This document shows, in pieces, positions 3,995 through 29,545 of a stretch of DNA of 39,767 nucleotides. A model generated the notes under the pieces. That model searched no databases and was not told the origin of the DNA. It saw only the letters and a program-made list of their open reading frames with translations. The DNA is from Micrococcales bacterium (GTDB lineage Bacteria; Actinomycetota; Actinomycetes; Actinomycetales; Microbacteriaceae): the NCBI GenBank assembly GCA_947483795.1, contig CANKLZ010000005.1, forward strand, positions 1 to 39,767, written 5' to 3'. The translations under genes and the position numbers were made by a program. Positions within the stretch are counted from its first letter, which is position 1. Each line of letters begins with the position of its first letter.

Positions 3995-4048
3995 AAGTGA
4001 AAACCCCAGCCGAGGGGGGCTGGGGCATTTGTGGCTGATGAGCTATTC
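3995..4048. repeat. left direct repeat: tRNA-Tyr 3'-end remnant plus terminator (att-like)
   Basis: This 54-base segment aligns with 29767-29821 at 45 of 55 columns, with one gap. Matching blocks are AAGTGAAAA, CCCCAGCCG, GGGCTGGGG, GTGGCT, TGAG and ATTC. In the right copy the GTGGCT..TGAG..ATTC part is the 3' end of the tRNA-Tyr gene. Weaker similarity (TTTGGCTT..AC) extends leftward to 3975. The left copy overlaps the last codons of the thioesterase gene. I read it as an attR-like scar of integration at tRNA-Tyr; that is inference. Confidence 0.55.
4000..4025 (-). terminator. rho-independent terminator of the glp-like operon
   Basis: On the minus strand an 8-bp stem GGCTGGGG/CCCCAGCC (arms 4004-4011 and 4018-4025, loop of six) is followed by TTTT. 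It lies directly downstream of the thioesterase stop codon and ends the unit that starts at 8733. It also lies inside the left direct repeat. Confidence 0.8.
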
Positions 4049-4450
4049 ATGCTCCTTGGGTATGCGATCCCTCTCGGTACTGACTGAATCGTAGCCATGG
4101 GGAAACGGCCGGCCTGAGCTATCCAAGCTCACAAAAACAATTCGATCCACGGTCAGAATATTCTTCTTGGTGACCATGTTGCGAACTTCAGCTCGCATGG
4201 TGATTGATGTGGTGCCAAACTTTGTTGGAACCAGGCCTATTTCTATTAAGTCGCCCTCGATTGCAGAGGTAATAAAGTTGATTTCAGACATGAATTTTGT
4301 CACCACTCGGCGATTACCCAATTGCAAAATTGCGTGAATAGTGGCTTCCTCATCAATCCAACGCAAGAGACTTCCCCCAAAAAGTGTTCTATTGGCATTC
4401 AGGTCTTCGGGTCGCACCCATTTGCGCGTGGTGAATTCTATTTCTGACAA
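4043..4450 (-). CDS. acyl-CoA thioesterase, hotdog fold (YciA/BACH-type)
   Basis: The protein has 135 residues, the usual size of a single-hotdog acyl-CoA thioesterase. The N-terminal DLNANRTLFGG followed by LLRWIDEEA at about residues 16-36 is the family's active-site and helix signature. It should hydrolyse an acyl-CoA to free acid and CoA; chain-length preference cannot be read. The start is TTG at 4450, two bases after the glpX stop, with no clear ribosome-binding site, so it is probably translationally coupled to glpX. It is the last gene of the glp-like operon and is followed at once by the terminator. It might relieve CoA trapped in acyl-CoAs made by the E1/E2/E3 complex of the same locus (inference). 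Confidence 0.85.
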   Translation of the reverse strand: MSEIEFTTRKWVRPEDLNANRTLFGGSLLRWIDEEATIHAILQLGNRRVVTKFMSEINFITSAIEGDLIEIGLVPTKFGTTSITMRAEVRNMVTKKNILTVDRIVFVSLDSSGRPFPHGYDSVSTERDRIPKEHE

Positions 4451-4452
4451 GG

Positions 4453-5484
4453 CTAGAATCCATTCAAGTCATATGGCGACCTTTTGTTTTTCCACCGACT
4501 TGCAATGTGGTCTGCGCTCACTCTGCGAATTGTCCCCGAGTGAGATCGCAGAATCATACTTTCGGTCCGGATTAGGTCACCTTTTCTATAAACGCCGTTA
4601 AGGAGCAAACCGTCAGTGACTCCAGTGGCGACGAAGTACGTGTTGTCACTGGCCACCAAATCATCAATCTCAAAGATTTTCTCTAGATTGTGTCCAGCTA
4701 AAATAGCGTTCTTCATCTCTTCAGGCGAAAGCGGGGATAAACGACCTTGCATGTAGCCTCCGAGTGCTTTCGTGGCACATGCAGAAATGGTCCCCTCTGG
4801 CGCTCCACCAATTCCAAGCAACATATCTATGCCACCGCTTCCAGTGACCGCATGAACGCCGGCTGCGACGTCTCCGTCCAAGAAAAGCCGAGTTCGAGCT
4901 CCTGCTAATCTCACTTGATCCACAATTTCGCGATGGCGAGGTCTATCAATAATCGCGACAGTGATTTCACTGACATCTTTATTCAGGGCCTTCGCTAACT
5001 CACGGACATTCTCAGCAGGACTTAGGTCCAGGCTCACCACACCTTTCCCTGCGATTGTTGTGATCAGTTTGTTCATATAAAAGACATCTTTAGGGTTGTA
5101 CATGGTCCCTCGGTCGCTGACTGCTATCACGGATATAGCGTGTGCTCTACCTTCAGCTGTGACCGATGTGCCATCGACTGGATCGACCGCAATATCGTAT
5201 TTAGGGCCATTTCCATTTCCCACGATCTCGCCATTTGCGAGCATTGGAGCATCATCCTTTTCACCCTCTCCAATTATGACGGTCCCCTCGAAATCCACAG
5301 TGTTTAGGAAATCTCTCATGGCGGTGACAGCCGCACCATCAGCAGAATCCTTGTCCCCTCGGCCGATCCAAGCACTCGCCTGAATTGCTGCGGCTTCGGT
5401 GGCTCGAACCAACTCCATGCCTAGATTTCTATCCGGTAGCGAGCTCTGCCCCCTCTCTAGCAAACTTGAATCAATTTCGCCCAT
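4453..5484 (-). CDS. glpX: class II fructose-1,6-bisphosphatase GlpX
   Basis: The protein has 343 residues, normal for GlpX. GEGEKD at residues 72-77 and DPVDGT at 101-106 are the metal- and phosphate-binding signatures of the lithium-sensitive phosphatase fold. It hydrolyses fructose 1,6-bisphosphate to fructose 6-phosphate, the committed gluconeogenic step, in the cytoplasm. ATG at 5484 is preceded by AAAGGTG at suitable spacing. It lies downstream of the glpD-like and glpK-like genes in one direction and is probably co-transcribed. As in E. coli glpFKX, the grouping says that growth on the substrate yields triose phosphates that must be turned into hexose phosphate. Whether this is the only FBPase of the cell is unknown. 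Confidence 0.93.
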   Translation of the reverse strand: MGEIDSSLLERGQSSLPDRNLGMELVRATEAAAIQASAWIGRGDKDSADGAAVTAMRDFLNTVDFEGTVIIGEGEKDDAPMLANGEIVGNGNGPKYDIAVDPVDGTSVTAEGRAHAISVIAVSDRGTMYNPKDVFYMNKLITTIAGKGVVSLDLSPAENVRELAKALNKDVSEITVAIIDRPRHREIVDQVRLAGARTRLFLDGDVAAGVHAVTGSGGIDMLLGIGGAPEGTISACATKALGGYMQGRLSPLSPEEMKNAILAGHNLEKIFEIDDLVASDNTYFVATGVTDGLLLNGVYRKGDLIRTESMILRSHSGTIRRVSADHIASRWKNKRSPYDLNGF

Positions 5485-5560
5485 GCTCGGACACCTTTCT
5501 TCGGAGATCTAAGTCCCGGTTTGTTTTGGAAAACGCCTCACGATTCACGGTCTACACAAC

Positions 5561-7063
5561 TTAGGGGCGCACGGGCAAGCTGCGTGCAGCGGCCACGGCA
5601 TCCTGCCAGCCGGCGTAAATTCTTTCACGCTCGTCTTCGCTCATTCGAGGCTCAAAGGTTCTGTCAAGAATCCAGCGCTGAGAAATGCTATCTTCACTCC
5701 ACCAGCCAATTGCAGAACCGGCCATGTGTGCAATTCCAAGAACGGTGCGTTCTGGATTCACTGGTCGCAGAATCGGTATTCCTAAGATGTCTGCTTGAAA
5801 TTGGCAGAGCATATTGTTTTTTGTAGCTCCACCATCAACTTTGAGTTCAGGGACTTGAATCCCACCTGAGGTGAGTTTGTCAACATTGTCTCGGGTCTGG
5901 AATGCCATTGCCTCGATGCCTGCTCTGGCAACGTGAGACGAGGTTGATTCAAGAGTGAGGCCCATTATCGACGCCTTGACATTTCGATCCCAGTAAGGGT
6001 CGCAGAGTCCCGAGAATGCAGGCACAAAATAAACTCCGTTGCTCGATGACACACTCTCCGCCAGCGATTCAACTTCTTGAGTTGAAGAAAACAACTTGAG
6101 CTTGTCGCGCATCCATTGGATGGTTTGTCCGCTGTGAAATACGACACCTTCAGCTTCGTATGTCACTTGACCGTCAATACTCCAAGCGGCAGAAGTTGAC
6201 ATACCATCCATAAGTTTTGGAGCATTTCCAACGTTCACTACAAGTACGCTTGCGGTCCCAAAAGTATTTTTTGCACTGCCTGGTTCCAAACACGCTTGAC
6301 CAAATAGCCCAGCCTGCTGATCTCCCAACATGGCGGTCACCGGAACTGAGTGAGTGAGTGTTCCCAGTAGCACACCCTCTGCAAGTTCACCAAAAATTCC
6401 GGCGCTAGGAACTACCTGCGGCAATAGAGACATTGGGATGTCAAGTATTTGACAGAACTCTCCGTCCCACTGAGCCGTATGGATATCTAGCAGCGCTGTT
6501 CTTGAGGCAGCCCCTGGATCGATCTTGTGAGCGGTTCCGCCGGTCAAATTCCAAAGCAGCCACACATCTGGTGTGCCAATAGCTAGCTCTCCACGCTCAG
6601 CACGCTCGCGAGCACCGGGAATATTTCGAAGTAACCAAGTTATTTTGGCGGCAGAAAAATAAGAGTCATTGCGAACTCCGGTGCGCCGTCTGAATTCTTG
6701 GTCCAGCCCTTTGGCCGACCACTCTGCAACAATTTCATCGGTCTGTTTAGACATCCACATAATTGCGTTGTAGATCGGAATACCGGTTTTACGATCCCAC
6801 ATTACGATCGTTTCTCGGTGAGTGGTCACCCCAACAGCAGCAATGTCTTTGGCGCTAAGGTTTGCGGTCTTCATCGCTTCGTCAATGCAAGCCTTAGGAG
6901 CGTTCCATAGGTCGGCCGGGCTCAGCTCTACCCAGCCTGTGTTCGGAAACAGAGCGTCAATCGGTCGTGAAGCTTGACCTACAGTTCTTCCTTGGTCGTC
7001 GATAATCACAGCTCTAGCGCTGCTAGAGCCCCCATCTATAGAAAGTATGTAGTTACCTGACAC
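5561..7063 (-). CDS. glpK: FGGY-family glycerol kinase-like protein
   Basis: The protein has 500 residues, the usual GlpK length. Two actin-like FGGY domains are recognisable: phosphate loop DGGSSSAR at 10-17, substrate motif THRET at 81-85, SYFSAAK at 134-140, and GDQQAGLFGQ at 247-256. Residues matching E. coli GlpK Arg83, Glu84, Tyr135, Asp245 and Gln246 are kept. It would use ATP to make glycerol 3-phosphate. Several normally near-invariant positions differ: DGGSSSAR for DQGTTSSR, TTHRE for TNQRE, and DPGAASRT for the TD..NASRT block. A different polyol substrate is therefore possible. GTG at 7063 follows a strong AAGGAG. It sits between the glpD-like and glpX genes under the SorC-type operator. 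Confidence 0.82.
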   Translation of the reverse strand: MSGNYILSIDGGSSSARAVIIDDQGRTVGQASRPIDALFPNTGWVELSPADLWNAPKACIDEAMKTANLSAKDIAAVGVTTHRETIVMWDRKTGIPIYNAIMWMSKQTDEIVAEWSAKGLDQEFRRRTGVRNDSYFSAAKITWLLRNIPGARERAERGELAIGTPDVWLLWNLTGGTAHKIDPGAASRTALLDIHTAQWDGEFCQILDIPMSLLPQVVPSAGIFGELAEGVLLGTLTHSVPVTAMLGDQQAGLFGQACLEPGSAKNTFGTASVLVVNVGNAPKLMDGMSTSAAWSIDGQVTYEAEGVVFHSGQTIQWMRDKLKLFSSTQEVESLAESVSSSNGVYFVPAFSGLCDPYWDRNVKASIMGLTLESTSSHVARAGIEAMAFQTRDNVDKLTSGGIQVPELKVDGGATKNNMLCQFQADILGIPILRPVNPERTVLGIAHMAGSAIGWWSEDSISQRWILDRTFEPRMSEDERERIYAGWQDAVAAARSLPVRP

Positions 7064-7080
7064 GGCACTCCTTCCTGGGT

Positions 7081-7119: not shown

Positions 7120-8733
7120 CTAAGCTGGCACCTTTAGGTGATCTAGCCAAGTTTCATAGTTTTCAATTTGTTTTTTGCGCTCAACTGAACTCCAGCCTAG
7201 GTGAGTGCCAAGTATTTCTGATGCACGCTGCACGCCTTGAAGGCCGTGACCAGGTTCGAATGCTAAAAGGTTTCTTCGTGCAAAAATATCTGCCATAGTT
7301 TCAGCGAATTCTTTTTCGACAGAGAATATAAGTTCAGCTGCGATTGCTGCAGATTTTGGATCAAATCTTTCACCTAATTTTGAATTTTCACGAACCAGCT
7401 GCAGAATATCTTCTGCGCGAGTGCCGTAGAGCTTTAGAAGTCGCTCGGCAGAATCTATTTGCACAACATTATCTCCGTTGAAATTTTTTCTGAAAGCTTC
7501 CATGTCTGAACTGCGTGCACCTGGGAACATTGTGTTTTTGCTGACTGGTTTTTTCAATCCGCGACCGAGTTGCTTCACCGCTAGGTCAACCGAATCCTCA
7601 GCGAGTTGACGGTAGGTTGTCAATTTGCCACCAATGATTGAGTGCAGCCCTGGGTAGCCAGTCTTGGCGTGGTCATGGACTATGTGGCTCCGTGGAATTT
7701 TCCATTCAGAAACACCTGGCGTGTATGGCAGTGGTCTAACACCACTGTAAGTGTAAAGAACATCTGCGCGGGTGAGCTTTGCCTCTGGCATTAGGGTGTT
7801 CACTTCTTTGAGAAGGTAATTAATTTCATCTTGATCACAACGAGCCTCATCTGGTTCTTGCTCAAAAAGGTGGTCGGTTGTGCCAATTAGGTATCTGCCC
7901 ATCCAAGGAATAACAAGCACTAAACGCCTGTCAGATTGTGACTCATAGTAAACGACATCAGTCGGCCCACCTTCAAATGGGTCAACAATTATGTGGCTTC
8001 CTTTGGAACCTCCGATTAGACGTTTTGATTCCACTCGTAGAGAACCTTCATCGCCCCTCAAGACATAATCAACCCATGGCCCCGCGGCATTTATAGTTAG
8101 ATCGCCGCGGAGTTTAAACTTCTCACCACTACTGCCAATAGCGTGGACTCCAACAACGCGGCCTTTTTCTTTAATAACACCGGCGACTTTTGAGTGTAGA
8201 AAAATTTCTGCTCCTGCCTCTCCAGCTGCAACAGCAAGTTCGGTGCAAAGGCGCTCTGCATATTCGACTTGACCGTCTGTAAACAAAGCTGCACCGCCAA
8301 GACCCTCGGTTGACATTGCGGGAAATCGCTTTTTCACATCGGTCTTACCAAGTACTCGGTGCCACTTGACGCTTTTATCAAACGATAAAAAGTCATAGGC
8401 GAGCATTGCAAGGCGGATCATCCAAGCGGGACGCTTGTTTCTCGAATAGAAAGGCATAAGCAATCGCACTGGCCTAACAAGATGTGGTGCAACTTTAAAC
8501 AGCAGTTCACGTTCACGGAGGGATTCACGAACCAGGGGAATATCGCCGTGCTCAAGATATCTCAACCCACCGTGGACAAGACGACCGGACCAAGCAGATA
8601 CCCCATAGCAAAAGTCTTCTTGCTCAACCATGGCCACGCGCAGACCTCGCTCGGCTGCGTCGCGCAATATGCCGAGACCATTAATACCTGCCCCGATTAC
8701 TACTAGGTCGTAAGTCTTTTCCTGCTCTGGCAC
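7120..8733 (-). CDS. glpD: FAD-dependent glycerol-3-phosphate dehydrogenase-like protein (GlpD-1)
   Basis: The protein has 537 residues. The Rossmann dinucleotide-binding motif is GAGINGLGILRDA from residue 14. RLVHGGLRYLEHGD, an NAAGPWVD block, KGSHIIVD, GTTDH and the GGKLTTYR near the end of the FAD domain are standard GlpD landmarks. A DAO-C-type C-terminal domain follows. The expected reaction is glycerol 3-phosphate to dihydroxyacetone phosphate with electrons to the quinone pool, at the membrane. GTG at 8733 has AGGAGA five to six bases upstream. It is the first gene of the glp-like operon and diverges from the SorC regulator, with an operator between. A second paralogue lies at 17774-19525; GlpD-like enzymes also oxidise other polyol phosphates (EryB), so specificity is open. 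Confidence 0.88.
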   Translation of the reverse strand: MPEQEKTYDLVVIGAGINGLGILRDAAERGLRVAMVEQEDFCYGVSAWSGRLVHGGLRYLEHGDIPLVRESLRERELLFKVAPHLVRPVRLLMPFYSRNKRPAWMIRLAMLAYDFLSFDKSVKWHRVLGKTDVKKRFPAMSTEGLGGAALFTDGQVEYAERLCTELAVAAGEAGAEIFLHSKVAGVIKEKGRVVGVHAIGSSGEKFKLRGDLTINAAGPWVDYVLRGDEGSLRVESKRLIGGSKGSHIIVDPFEGGPTDVVYYESQSDRRLVLVIPWMGRYLIGTTDHLFEQEPDEARCDQDEINYLLKEVNTLMPEAKLTRADVLYTYSGVRPLPYTPGVSEWKIPRSHIVHDHAKTGYPGLHSIIGGKLTTYRQLAEDSVDLAVKQLGRGLKKPVSKNTMFPGARSSDMEAFRKNFNGDNVVQIDSAERLLKLYGTRAEDILQLVRENSKLGERFDPKSAAIAAELIFSVEKEFAETMADIFARRNLLAFEPGHGLQGVQRASEILGTHLGWSSVERKKQIENYETWLDHLKVPA

Positions 8734-8808: not shown

Positions 8809-8935
8809 CTATGCTAAGTATAGGTCAAAAAGAGCTGTAAACTGCTGTCTACTAACTCTATTTTGCCCCTCCGCCCCTACAGTGACCCATTCACAACCCG
8901 ATAGTCTATTCATCGTTACAGATAAGGAGTTGGCT

Positions 8936-9910
8936 TTGATTCAAGACAAGTACGACCTCGAGCAGATGAGGATGATGGTCAAAGTCTCCCACCTTTATCA
9001 CAACCGAGGCATGGTTCAGTCAGAGATCTCCCAGACCCTAGGCCTTTCCCAAGCCCGCGTCTCTCGCCTTCTCTCGGCAGCCGCCGAAGCAAACATCATT
9101 CGCACCGTTGTGGTCCCACCAATTGGCTTAAACACCGAAATCGAAGACCAGATCGAGAAGAAGTTTGGCCTGCTTGAAGTTCACGTGGTAGACACTATGG
9201 GCGGCACTGATATCGAGCGCGCAGAGACCCTTGGCCGTGCCCTCGGCAACATCTTCATCATTCTTCCGCTTAAGGACAAGGTGATTGGTCTTACCTCATG
9301 GAGCCGTTCCATGCGTAAATTCGTAGGCAGCCTGAACCGCTTTCCACACGCTAAAGCTCAAGCAGTTGTCGAACTAGTCGGGGGTGTTGGTGAGCCAACA
9401 TTGCAGCACGAGGCTACTAACGCCACCGCAAGACTTGCAACAGTGATTGATGCCGAGGCCAAGTTCCTTCGAGTCCCTGGAGTTGTCTCTACAATGGAAA
9501 TGAAAGATGCCATCCTACAGAGTGACCCACACGCACGCCTCACCCTAGAGGCGATGGACAAACTGGATATTGCACTTGTTGGTATTGGAACGTGTGCATT
9601 CAGATCTGGTCGAGTTTCCGAAGGTAACTTCTTTAGCCAAGAGCAGTTTGACCTAGCAAAATCTAAGGGTGCTGTAGGCGAAGTTAATTTGCGCTTCATA
9701 GACGAAAACGGAAAACCAATCAAGTCCGAGCTTGATGATTTGGTAATTGGAATTTCGCTCGATCAACTTGCCAAGGCAGAGCGCAGAATTGCGGTCTCCG
9801 GCGGTGTAGAGAAACACGAGATTACCCTTGCGGCTATAAGAGGCGGTTGGATCAACGTGCTAATCACCGATGAAGAAACCGCAGAGTACCTAATCTCACA
9901 AAGCATCTAA
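8936..9910 (+). CDS. SorC-family transcriptional regulator, sugar-phosphate-sensing type
   Basis: I place the start at TTG 8936, preceded by AAGGAG with 6-nt spacing, giving 324 residues, the usual SorC/DeoR-type length. An in-frame GTG at 8882 would add 18 residues but has no ribosome-binding site. A helix-turn-helix (VQSEISQTLGLSQARVSRLL) occupies about residues 27-46. The rest is the NagB-like effector domain, ending in the family's typical INVLITDEETAEYL. Members such as EryD, LsrR and SorC sense phosphorylated sugars or polyols and mostly repress catabolic operons. It is the only regulator in the block, is divergent from the glp-like operon, and is the natural candidate to bind the TGAA-N6-TTCA palindromes. 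The effector cannot be deduced. Confidence 0.9.
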   Translation: MIQDKYDLEQMRMMVKVSHLYHNRGMVQSEISQTLGLSQARVSRLLSAAAEANIIRTVVVPPIGLNTEIEDQIEKKFGLLEVHVVDTMGGTDIERAETLGRALGNIFIILPLKDKVIGLTSWSRSMRKFVGSLNRFPHAKAQAVVELVGGVGEPTLQHEATNATARLATVIDAEAKFLRVPGVVSTMEMKDAILQSDPHARLTLEAMDKLDIALVGIGTCAFRSGRVSEGNFFSQEQFDLAKSKGAVGEVNLRFIDENGKPIKSELDDLVIGISLDQLAKAERRIAVSGGVEKHEITLAAIRGGWINVLITDEETAEYLISQSI

Positions 9911-9973: not shown

Positions 9974-11470
9974 CTAGCCCAGGCGGGAGACTACTTCCTT
10001 CACCAGGGGCCACACGCGAGCAACAGATGTGTAGTTAACTTTTTCTGCAGGCGAATGCAAGGCTTGTAGCTCAGTACCAATCGAAATGATATCGGCAACC
10101 GGGACTTTACGACTAAACATTCCAAGCTCGAGGGAACACTGAGAAACTTCCACGTTTGGTTCGGCACCCAATACGTCCCGGTAGGCCTGCGAGGCGACTG
10201 CAAGCAACTCTGAATCTGGACGGTACGGAAATTCGGGTGCATCAAGGCCAAACATTTCTACCTTTGTTTGGCCACCAACGGCAGCTATCAAAGAACGCAC
10301 GCGGTTATAGAGTTCGTGTTTACGTGAGGTGACTGCAGAGGTGATGGTTGACATCAACTGAATACCATCTGCGGTTGGACGAATGGTTCCAAGGTTGTTT
10401 GAAGTCTCAACTCGACCTGGAACTCGCAAGTTCCAACTAATCACTCCATGCGGAATCAAAATTGTAACCGCCGCAAAACGAACTGCAGCTGGCTTAGAGA
10501 ACACCTTCTCTGGTGCGCTTGCAGAATCCAACTGCAAACGAACTCCAGGGTCAGCTACGCCGTACTCGTAACGCAAAGCTTCTTCAAGGTCGGCAACCAC
10601 CGCTGCAACCGCTGCGCTGTCACTTGGTTGCACAGAGAGAACAACCTCAGCATCAGCGGGAATCGCGTTGTTCTGTGCCCCGCCATAAGGAGCTGAGATT
10701 CGTGCGTCAACCTTGTCTAAGACTGCGTTAATTGCGCGGGCAAGAATCTGCAGCGAGTTAGCTCGCTCAAGTTGAATGTCAAACTCGCAGTGCCCGCCCT
10801 GTAGTCCTCGGACTGAGAGCTTGTGGTGTGCTGAGTGTGAGCTTGGGTTTGCCTCGAAATCTGCCGGCACGTCAACGGTGAAGGTCACATCTCCTGAACA
10901 GCCAGCCAAAATTTCTTTGTCGGTGATCCAGTTGAAGTCAATCATGCGACGACCCTTAAGTTGAGTGGTGTCGAACTGGTTAGCGCCAGCCTTACCCTGC
11001 TCTTCCATGGCAGTAAGTACTGCCTCTAGCGGTGGGTGCGGGGTGTTCTCATCTGCAAGCAGCGCAAGAATGTAGCTGACCCCGATGCCATTATCTGCGC
11101 CAAGGGAGGTGCCATCGGCGGTGATGTAGTCCCCGTCAAGCAGTAGTTTGATCGGGTCTTTTTTAAAGTCGAATTCAACGCCCTCGGCTTTTTCACAAAC
11201 CATGTCTAGGTGGCCGTGAAGAATAAGTGCAGGTGCGCTTTCTAGTCCGCCCTGGCCTGGCTTCTTAACCAAAACACAGCTCAGTGCATCCTTATTGGCT
11301 TCCAGACCGAGGCCGGTTGCGTATGCAACCACCCAATCTGCTACTTGAGTTTCGTTTCCTGAACCACGAGGGATATTTGCCAGCACCTCAAAAAGGCCAA
11401 GCACTTCTTTAGGCTCTAGATGGTCAAGGACGTTCTTGGTCTCAACCGCTGGAGAAATTGTTGGTGACAT
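9974..11470 (-). CDS. pepD: M20-family aminoacyl-histidine dipeptidase (PepD-like)
   Basis: The protein has 498 residues, the usual PepD/beta-alanyl-histidine dipeptidase length. Metal-site motifs are HGHLDM at 85-90 and LGADNGIG at 123-130, then a glutamate pair at 156-157 expected to carry the catalytic base. QGGH and the late HSPAEKVN supply further ligands, with a dimerisation (lid) domain in between. It should hydrolyse dipeptides in the cytoplasm with two zinc ions. The residue before the glutamate pair, usually Asp in M20 peptidases (DEE), is Met here. The start ATG follows AAGGAA. It begins 12 bases after the last permease gene and is likely the final gene of that operon. A peptidase behind a sugar-type importer is unexpected; cargo or a peptide/amide-linked substrate are both possible. 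Confidence 0.9.
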   Translation of the reverse strand: MSPTISPAVETKNVLDHLEPKEVLGLFEVLANIPRGSGNETQVADWVVAYATGLGLEANKDALSCVLVKKPGQGGLESAPALILHGHLDMVCEKAEGVEFDFKKDPIKLLLDGDYITADGTSLGADNGIGVSYILALLADENTPHPPLEAVLTAMEEQGKAGANQFDTTQLKGRRMIDFNWITDKEILAGCSGDVTFTVDVPADFEANPSSHSAHHKLSVRGLQGGHCEFDIQLERANSLQILARAINAVLDKVDARISAPYGGAQNNAIPADAEVVLSVQPSDSAAVAAVVADLEEALRYEYGVADPGVRLQLDSASAPEKVFSKPAAVRFAAVTILIPHGVISWNLRVPGRVETSNNLGTIRPTADGIQLMSTITSAVTSRKHELYNRVRSLIAAVGGQTKVEMFGLDAPEFPYRPDSELLAVASQAYRDVLGAEPNVEVSQCSLELGMFSRKVPVADIISIGTELQALHSPAEKVNYTSVARVWPLVKEVVSRLG

Positions 11471-15044: not shown

Positions 15045-15075
15045 TTGAATTCTCCTGATTAAGAGTTTTTGGAGC

Positions 15076-19525: not shown

Positions 19526-19538
19526 CTTGGCTCTCCCT

Positions 19539-23334: not shown

Positions 23335-23338
23335 TTTC

Positions 23339-23578
23339 CTACTCCTCGATAATTGCAATTACTGTGCGAACTTCAACGGTCTCGCCCTCTTTGACAAGGA
23401 TTTCAATTAGCGTTCCGGTTGCCGGAGACTCAAGGATCTCTTCTACCTTTTCGGCCTCAACCTCAGCTAGCGGCTCGTCTTCTACAACGCTGTCGCCAAC
23501 CTTCTTGAGCCAGGTCACGATTGAGCCCTCACTCATTCCCATGCCCCACTGAGGGAGCAAAACTTCTACTCTTGCCAT
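23339..23578 (-). CDS. free-standing lipoyl-domain protein
   Basis: The protein has 79 residues and is a complete biotinyl/lipoyl beta-barrel and nothing more. WGMGMSEGSIVTWLKKVGD precedes the hairpin turn EAEKVEE, where Lys44 is the lipoylation site. SPATGTL and EGETVEV complete the fold. ATG at 23578 has GGGAA upstream and the stop is five bases before the aldolase start. It must act as the swinging acyl carrier for the neighbouring E1 and catalytic-domain-only E2. Acid-rich flanks and the lack of linkers indicate a diffusible carrier like GcvH, not part of a cleaved longer protein. A biotin-carrier role is less likely, because the modified Lys is not flanked by the Met residues of the MKM motif. 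Confidence 0.9.
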   Translation of the reverse strand: MARVEVLLPQWGMGMSEGSIVTWLKKVGDSVVEDEPLAEVEAEKVEEILESPATGTLIEILVKEGETVEVRTVIAIIEE

Positions 23579-23607: not shown

Positions 23608-24627
23608 TTAGGCGAGCACTCTTTCTTTGTCTTTTTGAGTTATTTTTCTAACAGCAGCCACAATGTCCTGCTTGTTTGGATACATCTGCTTCTCAAGCGA
23701 GGGGCTGAACGGAATCTGCATATCAGGTGCTGTAATTCGGATAATCGGTGCCTTCAGCGAGTCAAAGACTTCCTCGGCAACGATGGCTGAGATTTCTCCA
23801 GCTGCTCCACAGGTTCGGTGAGCTGGCTCTACAACAACTAGGCGCCCGGTCTTGGCAACTGAATTTAGAATTGCCCGCTTGTCCAGCGGCACCAAAGTGC
23901 GCGGGTCAATTACCTCAACAGAGATTCCCTCTGTTTCAAGTTCTGTAGCAGCGGCAAGAGCTTCATGAACCGAGCTTGAAATCGCAACGATGGTGACATC
24001 TGTTCCCTCGCGGTGGGTGCGAGCAACACCGAAGGGAATCCAGAACTCGTCATCGTTTACTTCTTCTTTTAGGCCCCAGAGAATACAAGCCTCAAAAGTT
24101 AGTACCGGATCGTTCATATCAATTGCAGTGCGAAGCAAACCCTTGGCATCCGAAGGGGTTGATGGAACCATGATCTTTAGACCTGGTGCGTTCATGAACA
24201 TAGGGTATGGGCGGTCACTGTGGTGGGCACCGGTGTTTAGGCCGTAGAACATAGCCGAGCGGAATACAGCCGGCATCGAAGCCTGCCCCCCAAACATGTA
24301 ACGGTTCTTCGCAACCTGGTTTACCAGCTGGTCCATCGCCATGTATAGGAAGCTCGAGTACGAAAGGTCAACGATTGGACGAAGACCAGTCATCGCAGCA
24401 CCTGCAGCAGCTCCAACAATTCCCTCTTCCGAAATTGGTGTGTTGCGAATTCGGTTGCGGCCATACATCTGCACGAAGTCGCCGGTTTCTTGACGAGTCT
24501 TTCCGCCACCGGTGGTTCCGTACACATTTGCCTCTACGTCTTCACCGATGATGATTACGCGCTCGTCGGCATCCATCGCTTCTTTTTGTGCGGCGCCAAT
24601 GGCACCTAGAAAACTCATTACGCTCAT
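23608..24627 (-). CDS. thiamine-diphosphate dehydrogenase E1 beta subunit (acetoin/2-oxoacid type)
   Basis: The protein has 339 residues, usual for E1 beta. IIGEDVE at 26-32, the TPISEEGIVGAAAGAA block with the ThDP-activating Glu67, DLSYSSFLYMAMDQLVNQVAK, GLNTGAHHSDRPYP, and the C-terminal transketolase-like domain (VVVEPAHRTCGAAGEI) are all present. It forms a heterotetramer with the E1 alpha protein and decarboxylates or cleaves an alpha-keto/hydroxy-ketone substrate, passing the acyl group to the lipoyl protein. It starts at an ATGA overlap with the E1 alpha stop. The overall similarity seems closer to acetoin dehydrogenase (AcoB) and pyruvate dehydrogenase than to branched-chain enzymes, but specificity cannot be fixed by eye. 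Confidence 0.92.
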   Translation of the reverse strand: MSVMSFLGAIGAAQKEAMDADERVIIIGEDVEANVYGTTGGGKTRQETGDFVQMYGRNRIRNTPISEEGIVGAAAGAAMTGLRPIVDLSYSSFLYMAMDQLVNQVAKNRYMFGGQASMPAVFRSAMFYGLNTGAHHSDRPYPMFMNAPGLKIMVPSTPSDAKGLLRTAIDMNDPVLTFEACILWGLKEEVNDDEFWIPFGVARTHREGTDVTIVAISSSVHEALAAATELETEGISVEVIDPRTLVPLDKRAILNSVAKTGRLVVVEPAHRTCGAAGEISAIVAEEVFDSLKAPIIRITAPDMQIPFSPSLEKQMYPNKQDIVAAVRKITQKDKERVLA

Positions 24628-25610
24628 GCTGCATACTCCGAATCGGTGTAGAGATCTTTAAAGCCGACAGAAGGGTCAGGCCAGGGACTGTTCTCTGAAA
24701 AGGCAACTGCGGCATCAACCTCGGCCAAAATTTCAGCCTCGAGTGCGTCCATCTCTTCTGCAGAGAAACCTTCAACAGAAATTAGGTGCTCGCGGAACAG
24801 CACCAGTGGGTCCTTCTTCAGCCAAGCTTCACGCTCATCTGCCGGACGGTAATCGGTGCCCAAACGAAGACCCTCTGAATGTTCGTTGTAGCGGTAAGTG
24901 ACAACCTCAATCAGGCTTGGTCCCTCACCACGGCGAGCGCGCTCAACCGCGGTTGAAACCGCGTCGAACACTGCAAGTAGATCTTGACCATCTTCAACGC
25001 GGATTCCTGGAATTCCGAAACCTGCGGCGCGCTCAGCGATAACACCCGAGGTCACGGTGTGAGCCGGAGTTGAAAGTGCGTACTGGTTGTTTTCGCAAAG
25101 GAAGATAACTGGCAGATTCCAAACACCAGACATGTTCATTGATTCGTAAAGCACGCCCTGGTTTGCCGCGCCATCACCAAAGAAAGCCAGCGCAACTGTG
25201 TCGCGACCCAAAACCTGTGATGAAAGAGCTGCACCCATCGCGATTGGAATCGAAGATCCCACGATTCCCGATTCGCCGAGGCTACCCACGTTGAAGTCAG
25301 CTAAGTGAAGTGAGCCACCTTTACCCTGACAAACGCCGGTTGATTTGCCCTGAAGCTCAGCCATCAGTGGGCCAAGTGGTGAGCCCTTACCGATTGGGTG
25401 TCCGTGGCTGCGGTGGTTTCCAGACATGTAGTCTTTCTCGCCCAATGCCATGGTGGCACCAACAACCTGTGCCTCCTGGCCAATGCTGGTGTGCACGGTT
25501 CCAGGAATATGGCCTCTTTTGACCATTTTTGAGGCGCGTTCGTCAAATGCACGAATGCGCAGCATTCGGCGCTGAGCCTCTATCTTCTGCTCTCTACTTA
25601 GAGTGGCCAA
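24624..25610 (-). CDS. thiamine-diphosphate dehydrogenase E1 alpha subunit (acetoin/2-oxoacid type)
   Basis: The protein has 328 residues, the AcoA-like size. GHIPGTVHTSIGQEA near the N-terminus, CQGKGGSLH at 94-103, and the thiamine-diphosphate motif GDGAANQGV at 145-153 ending in ENN (173-175) are intact. RYNEHSEG is at the position of the usual phosphorylation-loop RYxGHS. It is the catalytic partner of the E1 beta protein. The start is TTG at 25610 with AAGGAG five bases upstream. It is the first gene of the operon of nine, behind a promoter and a SorC-type operator. It lacks the long N-terminus of branched-chain E1 alpha. Confidence 0.92.
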   Translation of the reverse strand: MATLSREQKIEAQRRMLRIRAFDERASKMVKRGHIPGTVHTSIGQEAQVVGATMALGEKDYMSGNHRSHGHPIGKGSPLGPLMAELQGKSTGVCQGKGGSLHLADFNVGSLGESGIVGSSIPIAMGAALSSQVLGRDTVALAFFGDGAANQGVLYESMNMSGVWNLPVIFLCENNQYALSTPAHTVTSGVIAERAAGFGIPGIRVEDGQDLLAVFDAVSTAVERARRGEGPSLIEVVTYRYNEHSEGLRLGTDYRPADEREAWLKKDPLVLFREHLISVEGFSAEEMDALEAEILAEVDAAVAFSENSPWPDPSVGFKDLYTDSEYAA

Positions 25611-25736: not shown

Positions 25737-26612
25737 TTATTCTTTTGTTTCGGGGTAAAGCGTTGCGATGTTTTGGAGCACGAAAGTCGGCCAGAAAGCC
25801 CTGTCGGTGGACTCGAGATCTTCAAGCTTTGAGTCTCCGGTCAGGACTAGGGCCGATTTCATGCCCGCATTTACGGCCATGCGAACGTCGGTTTCCAAGC
25901 GGTCGCCTACCATGATGGTCCTTTGTGCAGCTACCCCAATCTCGGCCAAGGCTGTCTCGATCATGGTGCTGTCTGGCTTTCCCATATTGGCTACGCACTT
26001 TGTGCCAGTGGTTGCCTCAATCGCTGCAACAATTCCGGCCGCATCCGGCTCACCCCTGCCACCTGGGAAAGGGCAATAGCGGTCAGGGTTCGTGGTGATT
26101 AGGAAAGCTCGCTTGTGCTGCCAGATTGCGTCAAAGGCAATCTGCAGTTTCGCGTAGTCAAAAGTGCGGTCGTAGCTGGCAATCACAATATCTATCTCAG
26201 TTGGATCGCTAGAAATCTTGATGCCGGCTCTAACCAGAGCATTGATAAGTGGTTCCTCGGCAATCGGAAACACCACGGCATCAGGGTGGTTTTGTTTCAA
26301 CCACAGCACGGTGGTCACCACGGTGTTGAGAATTTCTTCGCGCTTGGTTGGAATGCCTAAATCGTTCAACTTGCGCACGTACATGTCTGGATCACGGGTT
26401 GGATTATTCGAAAGAAAAATTGTCTTTGCACCAGCAAGACGCAAATTCTCAATCAGTTGACTGGCACCTGGCAGTAACTCACTGCCAAGGTAGATGGTGC
26501 CGTCTAGATCAAAAAGATAGGCGTCAAAAACTTCATCTGGAAGTGCGCCTCCTAGCTCTGCTACTGTTTCCGCTGCTGCAAATGACAACTCAGTCATTTT
26601 CTTTGTGCTCAT
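25737..26612 (-). CDS. HAD-IIA sugar phosphatase (NagD/AraL-like)
   Basis: The protein has 291 residues. HAD motif I LFDLDGTIYLG lies at 33-43, motif II FLSNNPTRD follows, and GKPDSTMI and motif IV VGDRLETDV are in the C-terminal half; the cap between them is of the C2A (NagD) type. It should dephosphorylate a small sugar or polyol phosphate in the cytoplasm. The start at 26612 overlaps the end of the kinase gene; ATG 26600, in an overlapping ATGACTGA, is an equally possible start. B. subtilis AraL, a member of this subfamily encoded in the arabinose operon, removes excess sugar phosphates, so a house-cleaning role for this pathway is plausible. Confidence 0.88.
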   Translation of the reverse strand: MSTKKMTELSFAAAETVAELGGALPDEVFDAYLFDLDGTIYLGSELLPGASQLIENLRLAGAKTIFLSNNPTRDPDMYVRKLNDLGIPTKREEILNTVVTTVLWLKQNHPDAVVFPIAEEPLINALVRAGIKISSDPTEIDIVIASYDRTFDYAKLQIAFDAIWQHKRAFLITTNPDRYCPFPGGRGEPDAAGIVAAIEATTGTKCVANMGKPDSTMIETALAEIGVAAQRTIMVGDRLETDVRMAVNAGMKSALVLTGDSKLEDLESTDRAFWPTFVLQNIATLYPETKE

Positions 26613-28104
26613 TTCGTGACGCGTTTAGAAAAACAGATTTCAATGCTGGATAAATTGTGCGATAGGTCTGGTAAAGAGTTTCGTAGCGTGCGGCGCTTTC
26701 AGGGTTTGGTTCGTAAAGTGTGCGTGTGGTGGTCATTGACTTGACCGCAACATCAATATTGGGGTACAGCCCGACACCAACCGCTGCCAGAATTCCAGCG
26801 CCACGCGCCGTGGCTTCGTCGCTACCGGCCAGCATCAATGGTCGATTCAATATGTCCGCAAATATTTGACACCAGAGTGGGCTTCTTGTTCCACCACCCA
26901 TCGCAATAAATTTTTGAATCGGCTCAGAAAGTTTAGGCTCGGCCTCTTCAAGACAAATGCGAAGTTCGAAGGCAACGCCTTCGAGCATCGCTCGATAAAC
27001 GTGCGCAGACTGATGTGCCCCGGTGAAACCCATCATTACACCACGTGCGTTGTGATCCCAGAATGGGGTGAGCTGTCCGTTCCAATACGGCAGCACAAAT
27101 AACCCATCAGCCCCAGGTTCAACGTCTTGGGCTTGGCGCTCCCAGAAAACTTCTTTTGATAATCCACCAGGTAGTTCTTGATTTGCCGCGAAGGTTTTCA
27201 TAAACCAAGACACCATCAAAGTTCCAGCGCCAACAAACAGTTCGTAATTGAAGGTGCCCGGAATTGTTCCGGCCATCGCGCGGTAGGCAGTGCTTGCCGA
27301 ATAGTTATCGCTAAAGAAACCTGAAATTAATCCAGAACCAACGTTTAGGTAGGCAAGTCCTGGCCCAGTGATCCCAGCTCCGAGTCCGGCTGACTGGCCA
27401 TCACCTGCTCCAGAGATAATTGGAATGCCGGCAGGTAGCGCCAGTGCCTTAGCTGCTTTGTCACTCAGCAACCCAAGCACCTCCCCCGGTTTTACAAGTT
27501 CGGGCAACAAGCTTCGGTCAATGCCAATGATTTCTAAAATCTCATCTGAGTAATCGCCGGTGGCAAGATCAATTAGCCCAAGCGGGTCAGCGCTAGCCAC
27601 CGATGTCTTCCACTCACCAGTTAGTTCGTGAGCCAGGTAGGCGTGCACATCAACAATGTGTGTGGTTCGCTTAAGGGTCTCTGGCTCGTTCTCTCGAATC
27701 CACAGCAACTTATAAAAAGCTGGTGTTGGGTTAGGAGGTTTGCCAGTGAGTGCGTGAATGCGCTCAGTGCCAAAGCGGTTTACCTGATTACCAGCGCGCA
27801 CATCCAACCAAAGCATTGCTGGGCGTATCGGTGCATCCGATGAGTCAAGGCAAGCAAAAGTCTCCCGCTGATGAGTGACGGCAAAACCTCTAACTCGTGA
27901 CGGGTCAAGGTACTGCATGCAAGAGCGCACAGCTTTGACAAAACCGTTCCACCAATCGCGCGGGTCCTGCTCGCCGTAGCCGTGTTCTGGGATGCTCAGT
28001 TCAAGAGCGCTCGATCCAGTGGAAACCTGAGTGCCGTCTAAACCCCAAGCGATGCACTTCACGCCGGATGTCGAACAGTCAACCGATAAAATCAGATCAG
28101 ACAT
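26590..28104 (-). CDS. FGGY-family carbohydrate kinase (xylulokinase/gluconokinase-like)
   Basis: I choose ATG 28104, with GAGGTGG close upstream and overlapping the preceding stop, giving 504 residues. The N-terminal phosphate loop is VDCSTSGVKC, the substrate region VTHQRETFACLD, the central hinge SGAGDGQSAGLGAG, and the C-terminal FGGY-like element MGGGTRSPLWCQIFAD with ATARGAGILAAVG. It phosphorylates a sugar, ketose or polyol using ATP. It resembles xylulokinase, LsrK and gluconokinase about equally by eye, so I give no symbol. It is flanked by the AraM-like dehydrogenase and the HAD-IIA phosphatase and is controlled by the promoter with two operators at 29616-29684. It is distinct from the glpK-like kinase at 5561-7063. 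Confidence 0.9.
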   Translation of the reverse strand: MSDLILSVDCSTSGVKCIAWGLDGTQVSTGSSALELSIPEHGYGEQDPRDWWNGFVKAVRSCMQYLDPSRVRGFAVTHQRETFACLDSSDAPIRPAMLWLDVRAGNQVNRFGTERIHALTGKPPNPTPAFYKLLWIRENEPETLKRTTHIVDVHAYLAHELTGEWKTSVASADPLGLIDLATGDYSDEILEIIGIDRSLLPELVKPGEVLGLLSDKAAKALALPAGIPIISGAGDGQSAGLGAGITGPGLAYLNVGSGLISGFFSDNYSASTAYRAMAGTIPGTFNYELFVGAGTLMVSWFMKTFAANQELPGGLSKEVFWERQAQDVEPGADGLFVLPYWNGQLTPFWDHNARGVMMGFTGAHQSAHVYRAMLEGVAFELRICLEEAEPKLSEPIQKFIAMGGGTRSPLWCQIFADILNRPLMLAGSDEATARGAGILAAVGVGLYPNIDVAVKSMTTTRTLYEPNPESAARYETLYQTYRTIYPALKSVFLNASRNEHKEND

Positions 28105-29545
28105 TTTCCACCTCACTGATTAGGGTCTCAACGCGATTTAGAACTTCGTCGACATCGTTGCTCGTCCACCAACCAGCGGCATCTAAAAGATCAACAATAG
28201 TTACGCGATTACGCATAAGGTAACAGTTTCTAACCGCCCACTTCCAAACATCAGCAGTTACCCAATCGTCTAGTTGAGAAGGCGAGTATGCAGCACCGGC
28301 TAGGTGCAAACCGCGTAAGAGATTTTCTGAGTTAGGTAAGGTCTTGCCCAGGGCAGTTTCAATTTCTTCTGCGGAGCTAAGCAGCTCAGTAATTTTGTCT
28401 CCAGCGGAATCTAGCTTGGCAAGTTTTGCCGAGTAGTCATTCCAGCACTCTGCACCGAGCGCTCCAGTTTCATCACAAACAACAAACACAGAGGCAACCG
28501 TTTGTTCTAAACCAGCGGTCGAATTGCGAATCTCAATTTTGCGACCGGCACGAATTTGATCAAGCAGGTATTCCCAAGTCACGGCTGCAACAACGGAGGC
28601 CACGCCTACCTGCTTACCGTGCAAACCAACTTCAAAGTGGTGACCTGCTGCATACATATCAAGCATGTGGCTAATCAGGTGTTCCATGCCAGACAGGCAG
28701 GCAGTTGTTCCTGCAATACCAGTGCCAATTCCGCGAATAGCCAAAACTTTGGTCAGTTGCTCAACTGCTACTTGGTTGCCCTGGCTAATGCCAGCGCACC
28801 ACTCACTTGGGTTTCCCGCAAAGGTGAGTAGCAAATCTCTTGGTGTGCTGTGAAAACTTTTATCAGTGCCCAGTTGATATGCCAACCACCAGTCAGCGGG
28901 TGCGGTGAATAGCGAAAGTAATTCGCCAAACCCAGATGTATTCAATTCAGCCGGAGCCGAAGAAATAACTTCGGTATCAGCCAGAACCACCTCTGGCCAG
29001 CGCGAATCAATTGTGCGCTTTGCGCCGGCACGAAGCACCACCGAGACGTTATCTGTATAGCCATCAACAGAAGCTGCAGTTTGCACCAACACGTGAGGCA
29101 CAGCACCCTGTCGATCACTTGCGACTTTGGCAATATCCGAAATAGTTCCGGAACCAACCGAGACCACTGCAGCAGCGCCTTCGAGAGCTTTGGTTGCAGC
29201 ATCGAGCGCAGTGTCGTCTGCATATAGATGGCCACCACCACCGAGAGTGATTCGGGAGACATCAAAGTGCTCTGCGAGAGATACCTCTATTAAAGACTTG
29301 AGGTCCTGACCGTTTCGAAGAATTTGGGTGGCATCAGCCAGCAACACAACCCGAGGTCGGCTAGCCGAGAGGTCAGCGTCCAGCAAATCATGAAGGTATT
29401 CAACTACCTTTAGCGAAGCATCCGCTGAAATAACCAGGTGCTTGATGCCTAGGGCAACCAGGTCGTGTGACCGATCCGACGCGGCAATCACTGATTTGAG
29501 CGTGGCCAGATCAGTCGGGTCTTCGACCTTTTCAAATAAGTTCAC
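28097..29545 (-). CDS. sn-glycerol-1-phosphate dehydrogenase-like protein (AraM/EgsA family)
   Basis: The protein has 482 residues, longer than the roughly 390 of B. subtilis AraM because of an extended C-terminal helical region. The NAD(P)-binding GSGTISD is at 131-137, and QTAASVDGYTDN (155-166) corresponds to the family's PTAPSMDGYTS. Metal-site regions GFGELL (205-210), GMEHLISHM (286-294) and LHGKQVG (308-314) follow. The residue usually Asp in GFGD is Glu208 here. It should reversibly oxidise a polyol phosphate such as glycerol 1-phosphate to a keto phosphate. GTG at 29545 has GAGGG upstream. It is the first gene of the trio with kinase and phosphatase. Actual substrate uncertain. Confidence 0.85.
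   Translation of the reverse strand: MNLFEKVEDPTDLATLKSVIAASDRSHDLVALGIKHLVISADASLKVVEYLHDLLDADLSASRPRVVLLADATQILRNGQDLKSLIEVSLAEHFDVSRITLGGGGHLYADDTALDAATKALEGAAAVVSVGSGTISDIAKVASDRQGAVPHVLVQTAASVDGYTDNVSVVLRAGAKRTIDSRWPEVVLADTEVISSAPAELNTSGFGELLSLFTAPADWWLAYQLGTDKSFHSTPRDLLLTFAGNPSEWCAGISQGNQVAVEQLTKVLAIRGIGTGIAGTTACLSGMEHLISHMLDMYAAGHHFEVGLHGKQVGVASVVAAVTWEYLLDQIRAGRKIEIRNSTAGLEQTVASVFVVCDETGALGAECWNDYSAKLAKLDSAGDKITELLSSAEEIETALGKTLPNSENLLRGLHLAGAAYSPSQLDDWVTADVWKWAVRNCYLMRNRVTIVDLLDAAGWWTSNDVDEVLNRVETLISEVENV

What the first reader, a model, noticed from the sequence alone, without database searches (positions are those of the whole stretch)
4043..29545. Unrecognised catabolic system joining polyol enzymes to an acetoin-type dehydrogenase complex
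The block combines a two-permease ABC importer, two FGGY kinases, two GlpD-like flavoproteins, an AraM-like dehydrogenase, a HAD-IIA phosphatase, a class II aldolase, E1alpha/E1beta/lipoyl/E2/E3, a lipoate ligase, an epoxide hydrolase and GlpX. I know of no described pathway with this set. Proposed route: phosphorylate and oxidise a polyol or deoxy-sugar, split it by aldolase into a triose phosphate and a small carbonyl compound, convert the latter to an acyl-CoA, and use GlpX for gluconeogenesis. Candidate substrates (speculative) are branched or deoxy tetritols, epoxydiols, or glycerol-containing compounds.
Basis: inference. Interest (0 to 1): 0.8.

Follow-up and report, generated by a model that had tools for sequence, protein, structure and literature searches.

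The report
Probable mobile polyol-degradation gene island
A small-genome actinobacterium carries a probably acquired 25-kb gene island, with counterparts in other actinobacteria and alphaproteobacteria, that appears to break down an unidentified polyol or deoxy-sugar with an acetoin-dehydrogenase-like enzyme complex, and its relatives hint at methylerythritol-type compounds as the food.

Summary
The first gene, a thioesterase, is backbone; GlpX to AraM (4453-29545) looks like an accessory island: higher G+C, imperfect 70-bp repeats at both ends, one including the tRNA-Tyr 3' end; 66 of 67 genus genomes lack the close E1alpha. The set is not accidental: in 28 named genomes with 69-87% identical E1alpha, AraM lies within 10 kb in 21, the aldolase in 23, GlpD in 18, against 0, 0 and 0 of 52 loci with more distant E1alpha. 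E3, GlpX and the second GlpD are not co-conserved. E1alpha shares its motif with an aco-like operon, not with an oxo-acid E1. Related E1 genes sit beside DXR-II, the alternative deoxyxylulose-phosphate reductoisomerase: 14 of 20 actinobacterial regions examined, 32 of 39 plasmid records. I propose that the complex cleaves a phosphorylated ketol, probably a 1-deoxyketose, to acetyl-CoA and triose phosphate. The window genome has no DXR-II match; substrate and the roles of AraM, HAD and aldolase are unproven. Ten library searches found no description of this route.

The parts
3975..4048 (.). left copy of imperfect direct repeat (terminator plus tRNA-Tyr 3'-end-like stretch), left island border
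   Evidence: local alignment score 73 with 29753-29822, next best elsewhere in the window 33; sequence
4043..4450 (-). 4HBT thioesterase; backbone gene, not part of the system
   Evidence: 82-85% identical gene 2.4-8.3 kb from tRNA-Tyr in L169, L170, L171 without the island genes
4453..5484 (-). GlpX class II fructose-bisphosphatase (accessory; 1 of 28 relatives)
5561..7063 (-). FGGY kinase 1, GlpK-like
   Evidence: NF000756 588.3 bits over cut-off 498, but 558.4 under the TIGR01311 cut-off 590.35; 14 of 28
7120..8733 (-). GlpD-like flavoprotein 1
   Evidence: PRK12266 362 bits vs cut-off 360; 18 of 28
8882..9910 (+). SorC/DeoR/LsrR-type sugar-binding regulator
   Evidence: 21 of 28
9974..11470 (-). 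M20 dipeptidase beside the importer
   Evidence: TIGR01893 over cut-off; 5 of 28
11483..12472 (-). ABC permease 2
   Evidence: 7 of 28
12478..14016 (-). ABC ATPase (CUT2, double)
14013..15104 (-). ABC permease 1
15139..16287 (-). substrate-binding protein
   Evidence: best PDB 2rjo, then 4rsm, 4rs3; 6 of 28
16466..17698 (-). EHN-type epoxide hydrolase, optional unit with the importer
   Evidence: best PDB 5f4z, 4i19; 75-87% identical where matched, 6 of 28 over threshold
17774..19558 (-). GlpD-like flavoprotein 2 (not co-conserved)
   Evidence: 2 of 28
19539..20306 (-). lipoate/octanoate ligase or transferase-like protein
   Evidence: PF21948 38.1 bits over 27; 20 of 28
20315..21730 (-). E3 dihydrolipoyl dehydrogenase
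   Evidence: TIGR01350 510 bits over 409; 0 of 28 within 10 kb of the E1 gene
21733..22416 (-). E2 acyltransferase, catalytic domain only
   Evidence: no lipoyl domain match; 22 of 28
22447..23358 (-). class II ketose-phosphate aldolase
   Evidence: 23 of 28
23339..23578 (-). 79-aa stand-alone lipoyl protein
   Evidence: 27 of 28; annotated biotin/lipoyl-containing protein in plasmid relatives
23608..24627 (-). E1beta
   Evidence: 28 of 28
24624..25610 (-). E1alpha, acetoin-type motif
25737..26612 (-). HAD-IIA phosphatase
   Evidence: 11 of 28
26590..28116 (-). FGGY kinase 2, XylB-like
   Evidence: XylB best NCBIfam model (290.9 bits) but under cut-off 380.25; 18 of 28
28097..29545 (-). AraM / glycerol-1-phosphate-dehydrogenase-like Fe-ADH_2
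   Evidence: 21 of 28
29753..29822 (.). right copy of the imperfect direct repeat, overlapping the tRNA-Tyr 3' end
29804..29886 (-). tRNA-Tyr, likely attachment site
   Evidence: a tRNA-Tyr beside the LacI and YajQ genes in 6 of 6 relatives

Best explanation
The block is an accessory catabolic island next to tRNA-Tyr. Shown: a co-conserved gene set centred on an acetoin-type E1alpha/E1beta, a lone lipoyl protein, a catalytic-only E2, a class II aldolase, AraM, an FGGY kinase, GlpD and a SorC regulator. Inferred: an ABC importer brings in a polyol or deoxyketose; FGGY kinases phosphorylate it; AraM and GlpD, whose known relatives oxidise opposite stereoisomers of glycerol phosphate (recalled), turn it into a ketose phosphate; the E1/lipoyl/E2/E3 complex then cleaves the C-C bond beside the ketone (R-CO-CHOH-R' + CoA + NAD+ -> R-CO-CoA + R'-CHO + NADH), most likely in a 1-deoxyketose phosphate such as 1-deoxyxylulose 5-phosphate (DXP) or a stereoisomer, giving acetyl-CoA and a triose phosphate; the aldolase and GlpX handle triose or ketose-1-phosphate products. 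My odds by step: one coherent catabolic system 0.95; ketol cleavage by the complex 0.75; 1-deoxyketose phosphate as its substrate 0.4; 2-C-methyltetritols as the imported food 0.25. The confidence below is for the 1-deoxyketose reading as a whole.
For: Co-conservation with an internal control: AraM 21, aldolase 23, lipoyl 27, GlpD1 18 of 28 against 0, 0, 6, 0 of 52 distant-E1 loci. E1alpha carries the HRxHGH motif of an aco-like operon (L190: sigma-54 regulator, lpdA, E1alpha, E1beta, E2) and not the YREHG of the genus' own core E1; it falls in a clade of 32 rows, support 100/98. DXR-II near the same E1 clade: in the operon in 2 of 28 loci (L071, L076); in genome G110 the window-type cluster is followed directly by SorC, DXR-II, a fused E1, E2, GlpD and FGGY; in Shinella sp. 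WSC3-e both clusters lie about 23 kb apart on one plasmid. Reverse test: 14 of 20 DXR-II regions examined (of 65 matches in 61 of 396 genomes), from 5 families, have E1alpha and E1beta homologues beside DXR-II; 32 of 39 plasmid records with DXR-II of 44% identity or more have E1alpha within 300 bp, many of them near-copies from rhizobia. Six DXR-II residues named in PMC3847144 are all kept in 24 of 26 E1-linked proteins. Chemistry: PDH is reported to make 1-deoxyxylulose from pyruvate and glyceraldehyde, XylB to phosphorylate it, and aceE mutants to make DXP (PMC3424233, abstract and discussion); FGGY2's best model is XylB.
Against: The window genome (82% complete) has no DXR-II match at 1e-50. 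Most DXR-II-linked E1s form another clade, 43-49% identical to the window's E1alpha, so their substrate may differ. The aldolase, so tightly linked here, is not found in the DXR-II operons and is not explained by DXP cleavage alone. Four loci of the same clade (L060, L062, L078, L079) lack aldolase and AraM. The reverse test is weighted: 9 of my 20 regions are one family (f34, all linked), while 30 of the 61 genomes are family f28, of which the 3 regions examined had no E1. One E1 of the DXR-II clade (L189) has no DXR-II within 8 kb; I had wrongly put it in the DXR-II group. Phyllobacterium has an 87%-identical DXR-II with no E1 within 7 kb. Ligilactobacillus, Listeria and Phyllobacterium proteins keep all six residues without E1 nearby. 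No biochemical data.
Confidence: 0.4

Rival explanations
1. Same architecture, but the ketol is an ordinary tetrulose or pentulose (phosphate); E1 takes the hydroxyacetyl half and makes glycolyl-CoA plus an aldehyde, for tetritol or pentitol use.
For: CUT2 importer, SorC regulator, FGGY and GlpD-type enzymes resemble erythritol/threitol gene sets (recalled); binding-protein hits include CUT2 proteins (polyol ligands recalled); SDR plus kinase variants.
Against: Ordinary pentulose phosphates need no such complex; DXR-II beside related E1 genes points to methyl-branched or 1-deoxy compounds.
Confidence: 0.25
2. The complex is a plain accessory pyruvate or acetoin dehydrogenase; the island is a glycerol/polyol scavenging set in which the aldolase and GlpX serve gluconeogenesis.
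For: GlpK passes a subfamily cut-off and GlpD1 a curated cut-off, narrowly; GlpX over cut-off; aldolase best models are fructose- and tagatose-bisphosphate aldolases; E1 scores best, though under cut-off, with PDH models.
Against: The genome also has a 928-aa frame with a Transketolase_N match that I take for AceE, another class II aldolase and another E1; the E1alpha motif is not the oxo-acid one; the aldolase gene overlaps the lipoyl gene and an aldolase homologue stays with the complex in 23 of 28 loci.
Confidence: 0.2
3. A mixture-degrading island: two separate pathways (glycerol/polyol phosphates through GlpK-GlpD-aldolase, and a ketol through FGGY2-AraM-E1) that travel together because both feed triose phosphate.
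For: Front modules are exchanged: GlpD-GlpK in L070, FucA-DXR-II in L071 and L076, in front of the same AraM-FGGY-SorC-E1 core; GlpK in only 14 of 28.
Against: GlpD1, GlpK and aldolase stand inside the E1-E2 gene run in several loci (e.g. L058, L066, L072).
Confidence: 0.15

Closest known systems
Acetoin dehydrogenase complex (AcoABC-Lpd)
   Same: E1alpha/E1beta/E2/E3 gene set; HRxHGH motif in E1alpha shared with one aco-like operon
   Different: no sigma-54 regulator in the block; lipoyl domain on a separate 79-aa protein and E2 without lipoyl domain; embedded with kinases, AraM, GlpD and aldolase
DXR-II (DRL) linked E1-E2 operons with sorbitol-type PTS or ABC importers
   Same: related E1, SorC regulator, importer plus kinase or PTS, GlpD nearby in some
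   Different: window lacks DXR-II; has AraM, aldolase, HAD, GlpK; E1alpha 43-49% identical
AI-2 (Lsr) uptake and breakdown (recalled)
   Same: CUT2 two-permease importer, SorC/LsrR-type regulator, FGGY kinase, end products acetyl-CoA plus triose phosphate
   Different: no LsrF or LsrG match among the block's family hits; thiamine-lipoyl complex instead of the LsrF thiolase
Erythritol/threitol catabolism (Ery and mycobacterial tetritol routes; recalled)
   Same: CUT2 importer, FGGY kinase, GlpD-like dehydrogenase, SorC regulator
   Different: no tetrulose-phosphate isomerase among the family hits; thiamine complex and aldolase added

Membership tests
Acetoin dehydrogenase complex | E1alpha HRxHGH-type motif instead of YRxHG | tested here: met
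   GNHRSHGH in window clade, STHRGHGH in aco-like L190, PSYREHG in the genus' core E1; one aco-like reference only, function inferred from its layout
Acetoin dehydrogenase complex | E2 with its own lipoyl domain | tested here: not met
   E2 matches the catalytic domain only; lipoyl domain is a separate gene
Acetoin dehydrogenase complex | sigma-54 AcoR-type regulator in the operon | tested here: not met
   only a SorC-type regulator and a LacI-type gene beyond the tRNA
Acetoin dehydrogenase complex | activity on acetoin | not testable with these tools
   needs enzyme assay
Pyruvate dehydrogenase E1 (alpha/beta type) | curated NCBIfam PDH E1alpha score | tested here: not met
   TIGR03182 311.8 vs cut-off 393.85; TIGR03181 254.4 vs 411.35
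Glycerol kinase GlpK (5561-7063) | equivalog cut-off TIGR01311 | tested here: not met
   558.4 vs 590.35; but subfamily NF000756 met, 588.3 vs 498
Glycerol-3-phosphate dehydrogenase GlpD (7120-8733) | curated cut-off PRK12266 | tested here: met
   362 vs 360, narrow; PRK13369 not met (340.6 vs 352); second copy 17774-19558 not met (288.2 vs 360)
AraM / sn-glycerol-1-phosphate dehydrogenase | Fe-ADH_2 domain and G1PDH structures as best solved relatives | tested here: met
   PF13685 72.8 over 28; best 9h4x, E 8.4e-23
AraM / sn-glycerol-1-phosphate dehydrogenase | activity on glycerol-1-phosphate | not testable with these tools
   needs enzyme assay; the main AraM copy varies from 38 to 59% identity across the clade's loci
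DXR-II-linked ketol pathway | DXR-II gene beside the E1 genes | tested here: not met
   no DXR-II match at 1e-50 in the window genome; present in 2 of 28 loci of the same E1 clade
Fructose-1,6-bisphosphatase GlpX | TIGR00330 cut-off | tested here: met
   337.3 vs 259.3

The most novel reading that the evidence does not exclude
The E1/lipoyl/E2/E3 complex is a DXP (1-deoxyketose-phosphate) dehydrogenase that runs the opening of the MEP pathway backwards for food: methyl-branched tetritols such as 2-C-methylerythritol (a plant metabolite and isoprene oxidation product, recalled) or 1-deoxyxylulose are imported, phosphorylated and cut into acetyl-CoA and glyceraldehyde 3-phosphate. DXR-II-PTS-E1 operons are the direct version; the window island, with AraM, GlpD, aldolase and an optional epoxide hydrolase, is a broader version for stereoisomers or epoxydiols.
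Probability: 0.3. Interest if true: 0.85.

Novelty: new variant of a known kind. Interest (0 to 1): 0.62.

Why it matters
If right, it gives a catabolic role to a family of thiamine-lipoyl complexes now annotated only as generic dehydrogenases, and a likely catabolic role for many DXR-II genes, whose scattered distribution the passages read here (PMC3847144, PMC13001223) leave without a clear pattern. It would also be a route by which bacteria eat methyl-branched tetritols, for which my searches found none, and it can be tested directly with purified enzymes and simple growth tests.

Tried and rejected
Rejected: chance assembly of unrelated units. Rejected: thioesterase as a pathway member. 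Considered and left as unproven: ether-lipid or teichoic-acid breakdown through AraM (not tested); AI-2 itself as substrate (no LsrF/LsrG among the family hits); the epoxide hydrolase as an obligatory step (6 of 28). A BKACE-family gene near relatives (tblastn matches in 6 loci) was not pursued. Ten literature searches (open-licence PMC only) gave no listed paper that describes this gene set or methylerythritol catabolism; several returned many more papers than were listed, with six exact phrases, returned zero. The isoprene-aerosol papers and the acesulfame papers on the Shinella strains were seen only as search listings. PMC13001223 was seen as one passage: it mentions Dxr-II but the words catabol and acetoin do not occur. 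PMC3847144: abstract and passages. PMC3424233: abstract and discussion. My gene callers are crude on high-GC DNA and leave genes out; counts rest on tblastn. One search uses stricter thresholds, and genes cut by locus ends count as misses (e.g. AraM in L082, FGGY2 in L061, L074, L077, L081). In some searches L189 was put in the DXR-II group by mistake; it has no DXR-II match in its 17 kb. E1alpha absence in six plasmid records means not among the 60 of 167 records that one search listed. PLSDB gene tables are incomplete. Structure prediction and fold searches were not used.

Full report
1. What is there. The block is a dense set of open frames, nearly all on the minus strand. NCBIfam and Pfam give: GlpX, a GlpK-like FGGY kinase, GlpD, a SorC regulator (plus strand), an M20 dipeptidase, permease, ATPase, permease and binding protein of a CUT2-type importer, an EHN epoxide hydrolase, a second GlpD-like flavoprotein, an LplA/B-type protein, E3, an E2 that matches only the catalytic domain, a class II aldolase, a 79-aa lipoyl protein whose frame overlaps that of the aldolase, E1beta, E1alpha, HAD-IIA phosphatase, an XylB-like FGGY kinase, and AraM.

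2. It looks like an island. G+C is 0.47-0.52 in the 2-kb windows of 4001-30000 and 0.43-0.46 outside. tRNA-Tyr lies at 29804-29886 on the minus strand, its 3' end facing the block. A stretch of about 70 bases holding a terminator-like inverted repeat and the tRNA 3'-end sequence occurs at 29753-29822 and, imperfectly, at 3975-4048; the alignment score is 73 against 33 for the next best place in the window. No integrase was noticed. Of 67 genus genomes searched (this one included, many incomplete), only this one has the close E1alpha; 63 others have matches at 29-42% identity, some of them in fused frames of about 740 aa, and 3 have none at 1e-20. AraM has no match in the 35 other genus members searched. 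In the nearest of six relatives looked at, G473, the left gene (93% identical), tRNA-Tyr, LacI gene (93%) and YajQ (94%) are in place but another 6.7 kb lies between left gene and tRNA; in 3 of the 6 a thioesterase 82-85% identical to 4043-4450 lies 2.4-8.3 kb from the tRNA without the island genes. The thioesterase is therefore counted as backbone, and the site as variable.

3. It is one system. Twenty-eight are 69-87% identical to the window E1alpha, then one at 61%, then 54% and below. In the 28 loci (up to 10 kb either side, three under 15 kb) homologues above fixed thresholds occur as follows: E1beta 28, lipoyl protein 27, aldolase 23, E2 22, AraM 21, SorC 21, LplA-like 20, GlpD1 18, FGGY2 18, GlpK 14, HAD 11, permease 2 7, epoxide hydrolase 6, binding protein 6, M20 5, GlpD2 2, GlpX 1, E3 0. 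In the other 52 loci, with looser thresholds: E1beta 22, E2 20, SorC 7, lipoyl 6, E3 3, FGGY2 1, HAD 1, GlpK 1, all others 0. The hosts include Microbacteriaceae, Micrococcaceae, Nocardioidaceae, Geodermatophilaceae, Streptosporangiaceae and Alphaproteobacteria. Annotated plasmids of Rubrobacter indicoceani and two Shinella strains carry much of the set (no E2 is annotated in the former), with lipoyl synthase beside it in Shinella. So the conserved core is AraM-FGGY-(HAD)-E1alpha-E1beta-lipoyl-(GlpD-GlpK)-aldolase-E2-LplA with a SorC regulator; the importer, epoxide hydrolase and M20 form a second, optional module; E3, GlpX and GlpD2 are local additions.

4. What the complex is. A maximum-likelihood tree of 104 E1alpha rows puts the window in a clade of 32 (support 100/98), apart from the genus' own E1 that I take for an oxo-acid E1. 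Its motif GNHRSHGHPIGKG resembles the STHRGHGHCIAKG of an Enterococcus operon with sigma-54 regulator, lpdA, E1alpha, E1beta and E2, which I take for acetoin-type from its layout, and differs from PSYREHGVAITHG of the core E1. PDH models score under their cut-offs. This supports cleavage of a ketol rather than oxidation of a 2-oxo acid; it is inference, not assay.

5. The DXR-II lead. A 430-440-aa gene beside several E1 genes (L046 of G110, MAGs L071 and L076, Agrobacterium L174) is homologous to PDB 3upy/3upl (E 3e-103 for L046; both recalled as Brucella DRL); three of these proteins tested carry Pfam 'Oxidoreductase DRL, catalytic domain' (L071, L224, L239). This is DXR-II, the alternative enzyme that makes 2-C-methylerythritol 4-phosphate from DXP (PMC3847144, abstract and passages). 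Reverse test: DXR-II matches occur in 61 of 396 Actinomycetota genomes. I fetched 20 of the 65 matches, chosen for spread and contig length, not at random: 14 have E1alpha (41-47%, one 39%) and E1beta homologues beside it, nine in one family (DXR-II-SorC-E1alpha-E1beta-E2) and five in four other families with DXR-II next to E1alpha; the six without are three of family f28 (43% identical) and three at about 36-37%. Family f28 makes up 30 of the 61 genomes, so across all of them linkage is probably nearer half. Among 39 plasmid records with DXR-II of at least 44% identity, many of them near-copies, 32 have E1alpha within 300 bp, one 8.4 kb away, six none among the listed matches; of those six I looked at one annotated region, a Phyllobacterium with an ABC importer and no E1, and one without annotation. 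Six residues named in PMC3847144 are all kept in 24 of 26 E1-linked proteins; of 11 unlinked ones L183, L184 and L240-242 differ at two or more, L234-236 at one, and L185, L187 and L188 at none. Several of these operons carry a sorbitol/glucitol-type PTS (L177, L180, L181, L224, L238), which would deliver a polyol already phosphorylated; others an ABC importer plus sugar kinase or an MFS transporter plus FGGY kinase. Two have an IspD-type gene within 5 kb (L238, L239; Pfam IspD over its gathering score; NCBIfam ispD 180.6 and 160.6 against a cut-off of 181.3), whose known substrate is the same methylerythritol phosphate. The simplest reading: polyol uptake and phosphorylation, DXR-II to DXP, then the complex to acetyl-CoA and glyceraldehyde 3-phosphate. 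PDH (the AceE type, not the alpha/beta type) is reported to make 1-deoxyxylulose, XylB to phosphorylate it, and aceE mutants to make DXP (PMC3424233 abstract and discussion), so the chemistry is within reach of thiamine E1 enzymes.

6. Back to the window. The same E1 clade has DXR-II in its operon in L071 and L076; in G110 (same genus as G132, whose 52,117-base contig has the length of the Rubrobacter indicoceani plasmid) a DXR-II cluster follows directly on the window-type cluster; in Shinella both lie on one plasmid about 23 kb apart. In L070, close to L071 and L076 in the tree, GlpD1-GlpK stands where FucA-DXR-II stands in those two. I therefore favour a 1-deoxyketose phosphate as the E1 substrate here too. 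Against it: no DXR-II match in the window genome, E1 types 43-49% identical, an E1 of the DXR-II clade without DXR-II nearby (L189), and an aldolase whose tight linkage this route does not explain. AraM and GlpD may interconvert stereoisomers of a methyl-tetritol phosphate through a shared ketone, or feed the aldolase with a ketose 1-phosphate; both are guesses.

7. Verdict. Real, accessory, co-conserved, and not described in the papers my searches listed; enzyme families known, combination new. Substrate open. Interest 0.62.

Noticed in passing
L177, L178, L180, L181, L223-L233, L237-L239: Recurring operon of DXR-II with E1alpha, E1beta and E2, mostly with SorC and in several cases a sorbitol-type PTS; candidate 2-C-methylerythritol catabolic operon and the most interesting side find.
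   Followed up: partly
L238:10869-11594 and L239:5079-5783: IspD-type cytidylyltransferase genes within 5 kb of DXR-II-E1 clusters.
   Followed up: partly
L150-L155 (same-genus genomes): E1alpha and E1beta homologues (33-37% identical), in fused frames of about 740 aa, with E2 and in most an ABC importer, in some genus members.
   Followed up: no
L045:14248-15195 and L042, L058, L063, L064, L067: A BKACE-family gene, 75-90% identical to the L045 copy, in six loci of the system.
   Followed up: no
L060, L062, L078, L079: Reduced variant: GlpK-like kinase, SorC, ABC importer and the E1/lipoyl/E2 complex, with an SDR in L060, L062 and L078, no aldolase or AraM; L060 adds a transketolase N-terminal gene.
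   Followed up: partly
L187 (Ligilactobacillus plasmid): DXR-II-like gene with sorbitol-type PTS, sugar-binding regulator, fructose-6-phosphate aldolase and transketolase, no E1: perhaps another end-game for the same kind of substrate.
   Followed up: no
window 3975-29822; L168 10.5-17.2 kb: The site downstream of tRNA-Tyr holds different content in the nearest relative looked at: probably an integration hotspot.
   Followed up: partly
window 34209-39439: Right flank holds UbiE-type methyltransferase, polyprenyl synthetase, chorismate-binding and thiamine-enzyme genes, a probable menaquinone locus.
   Followed up: no
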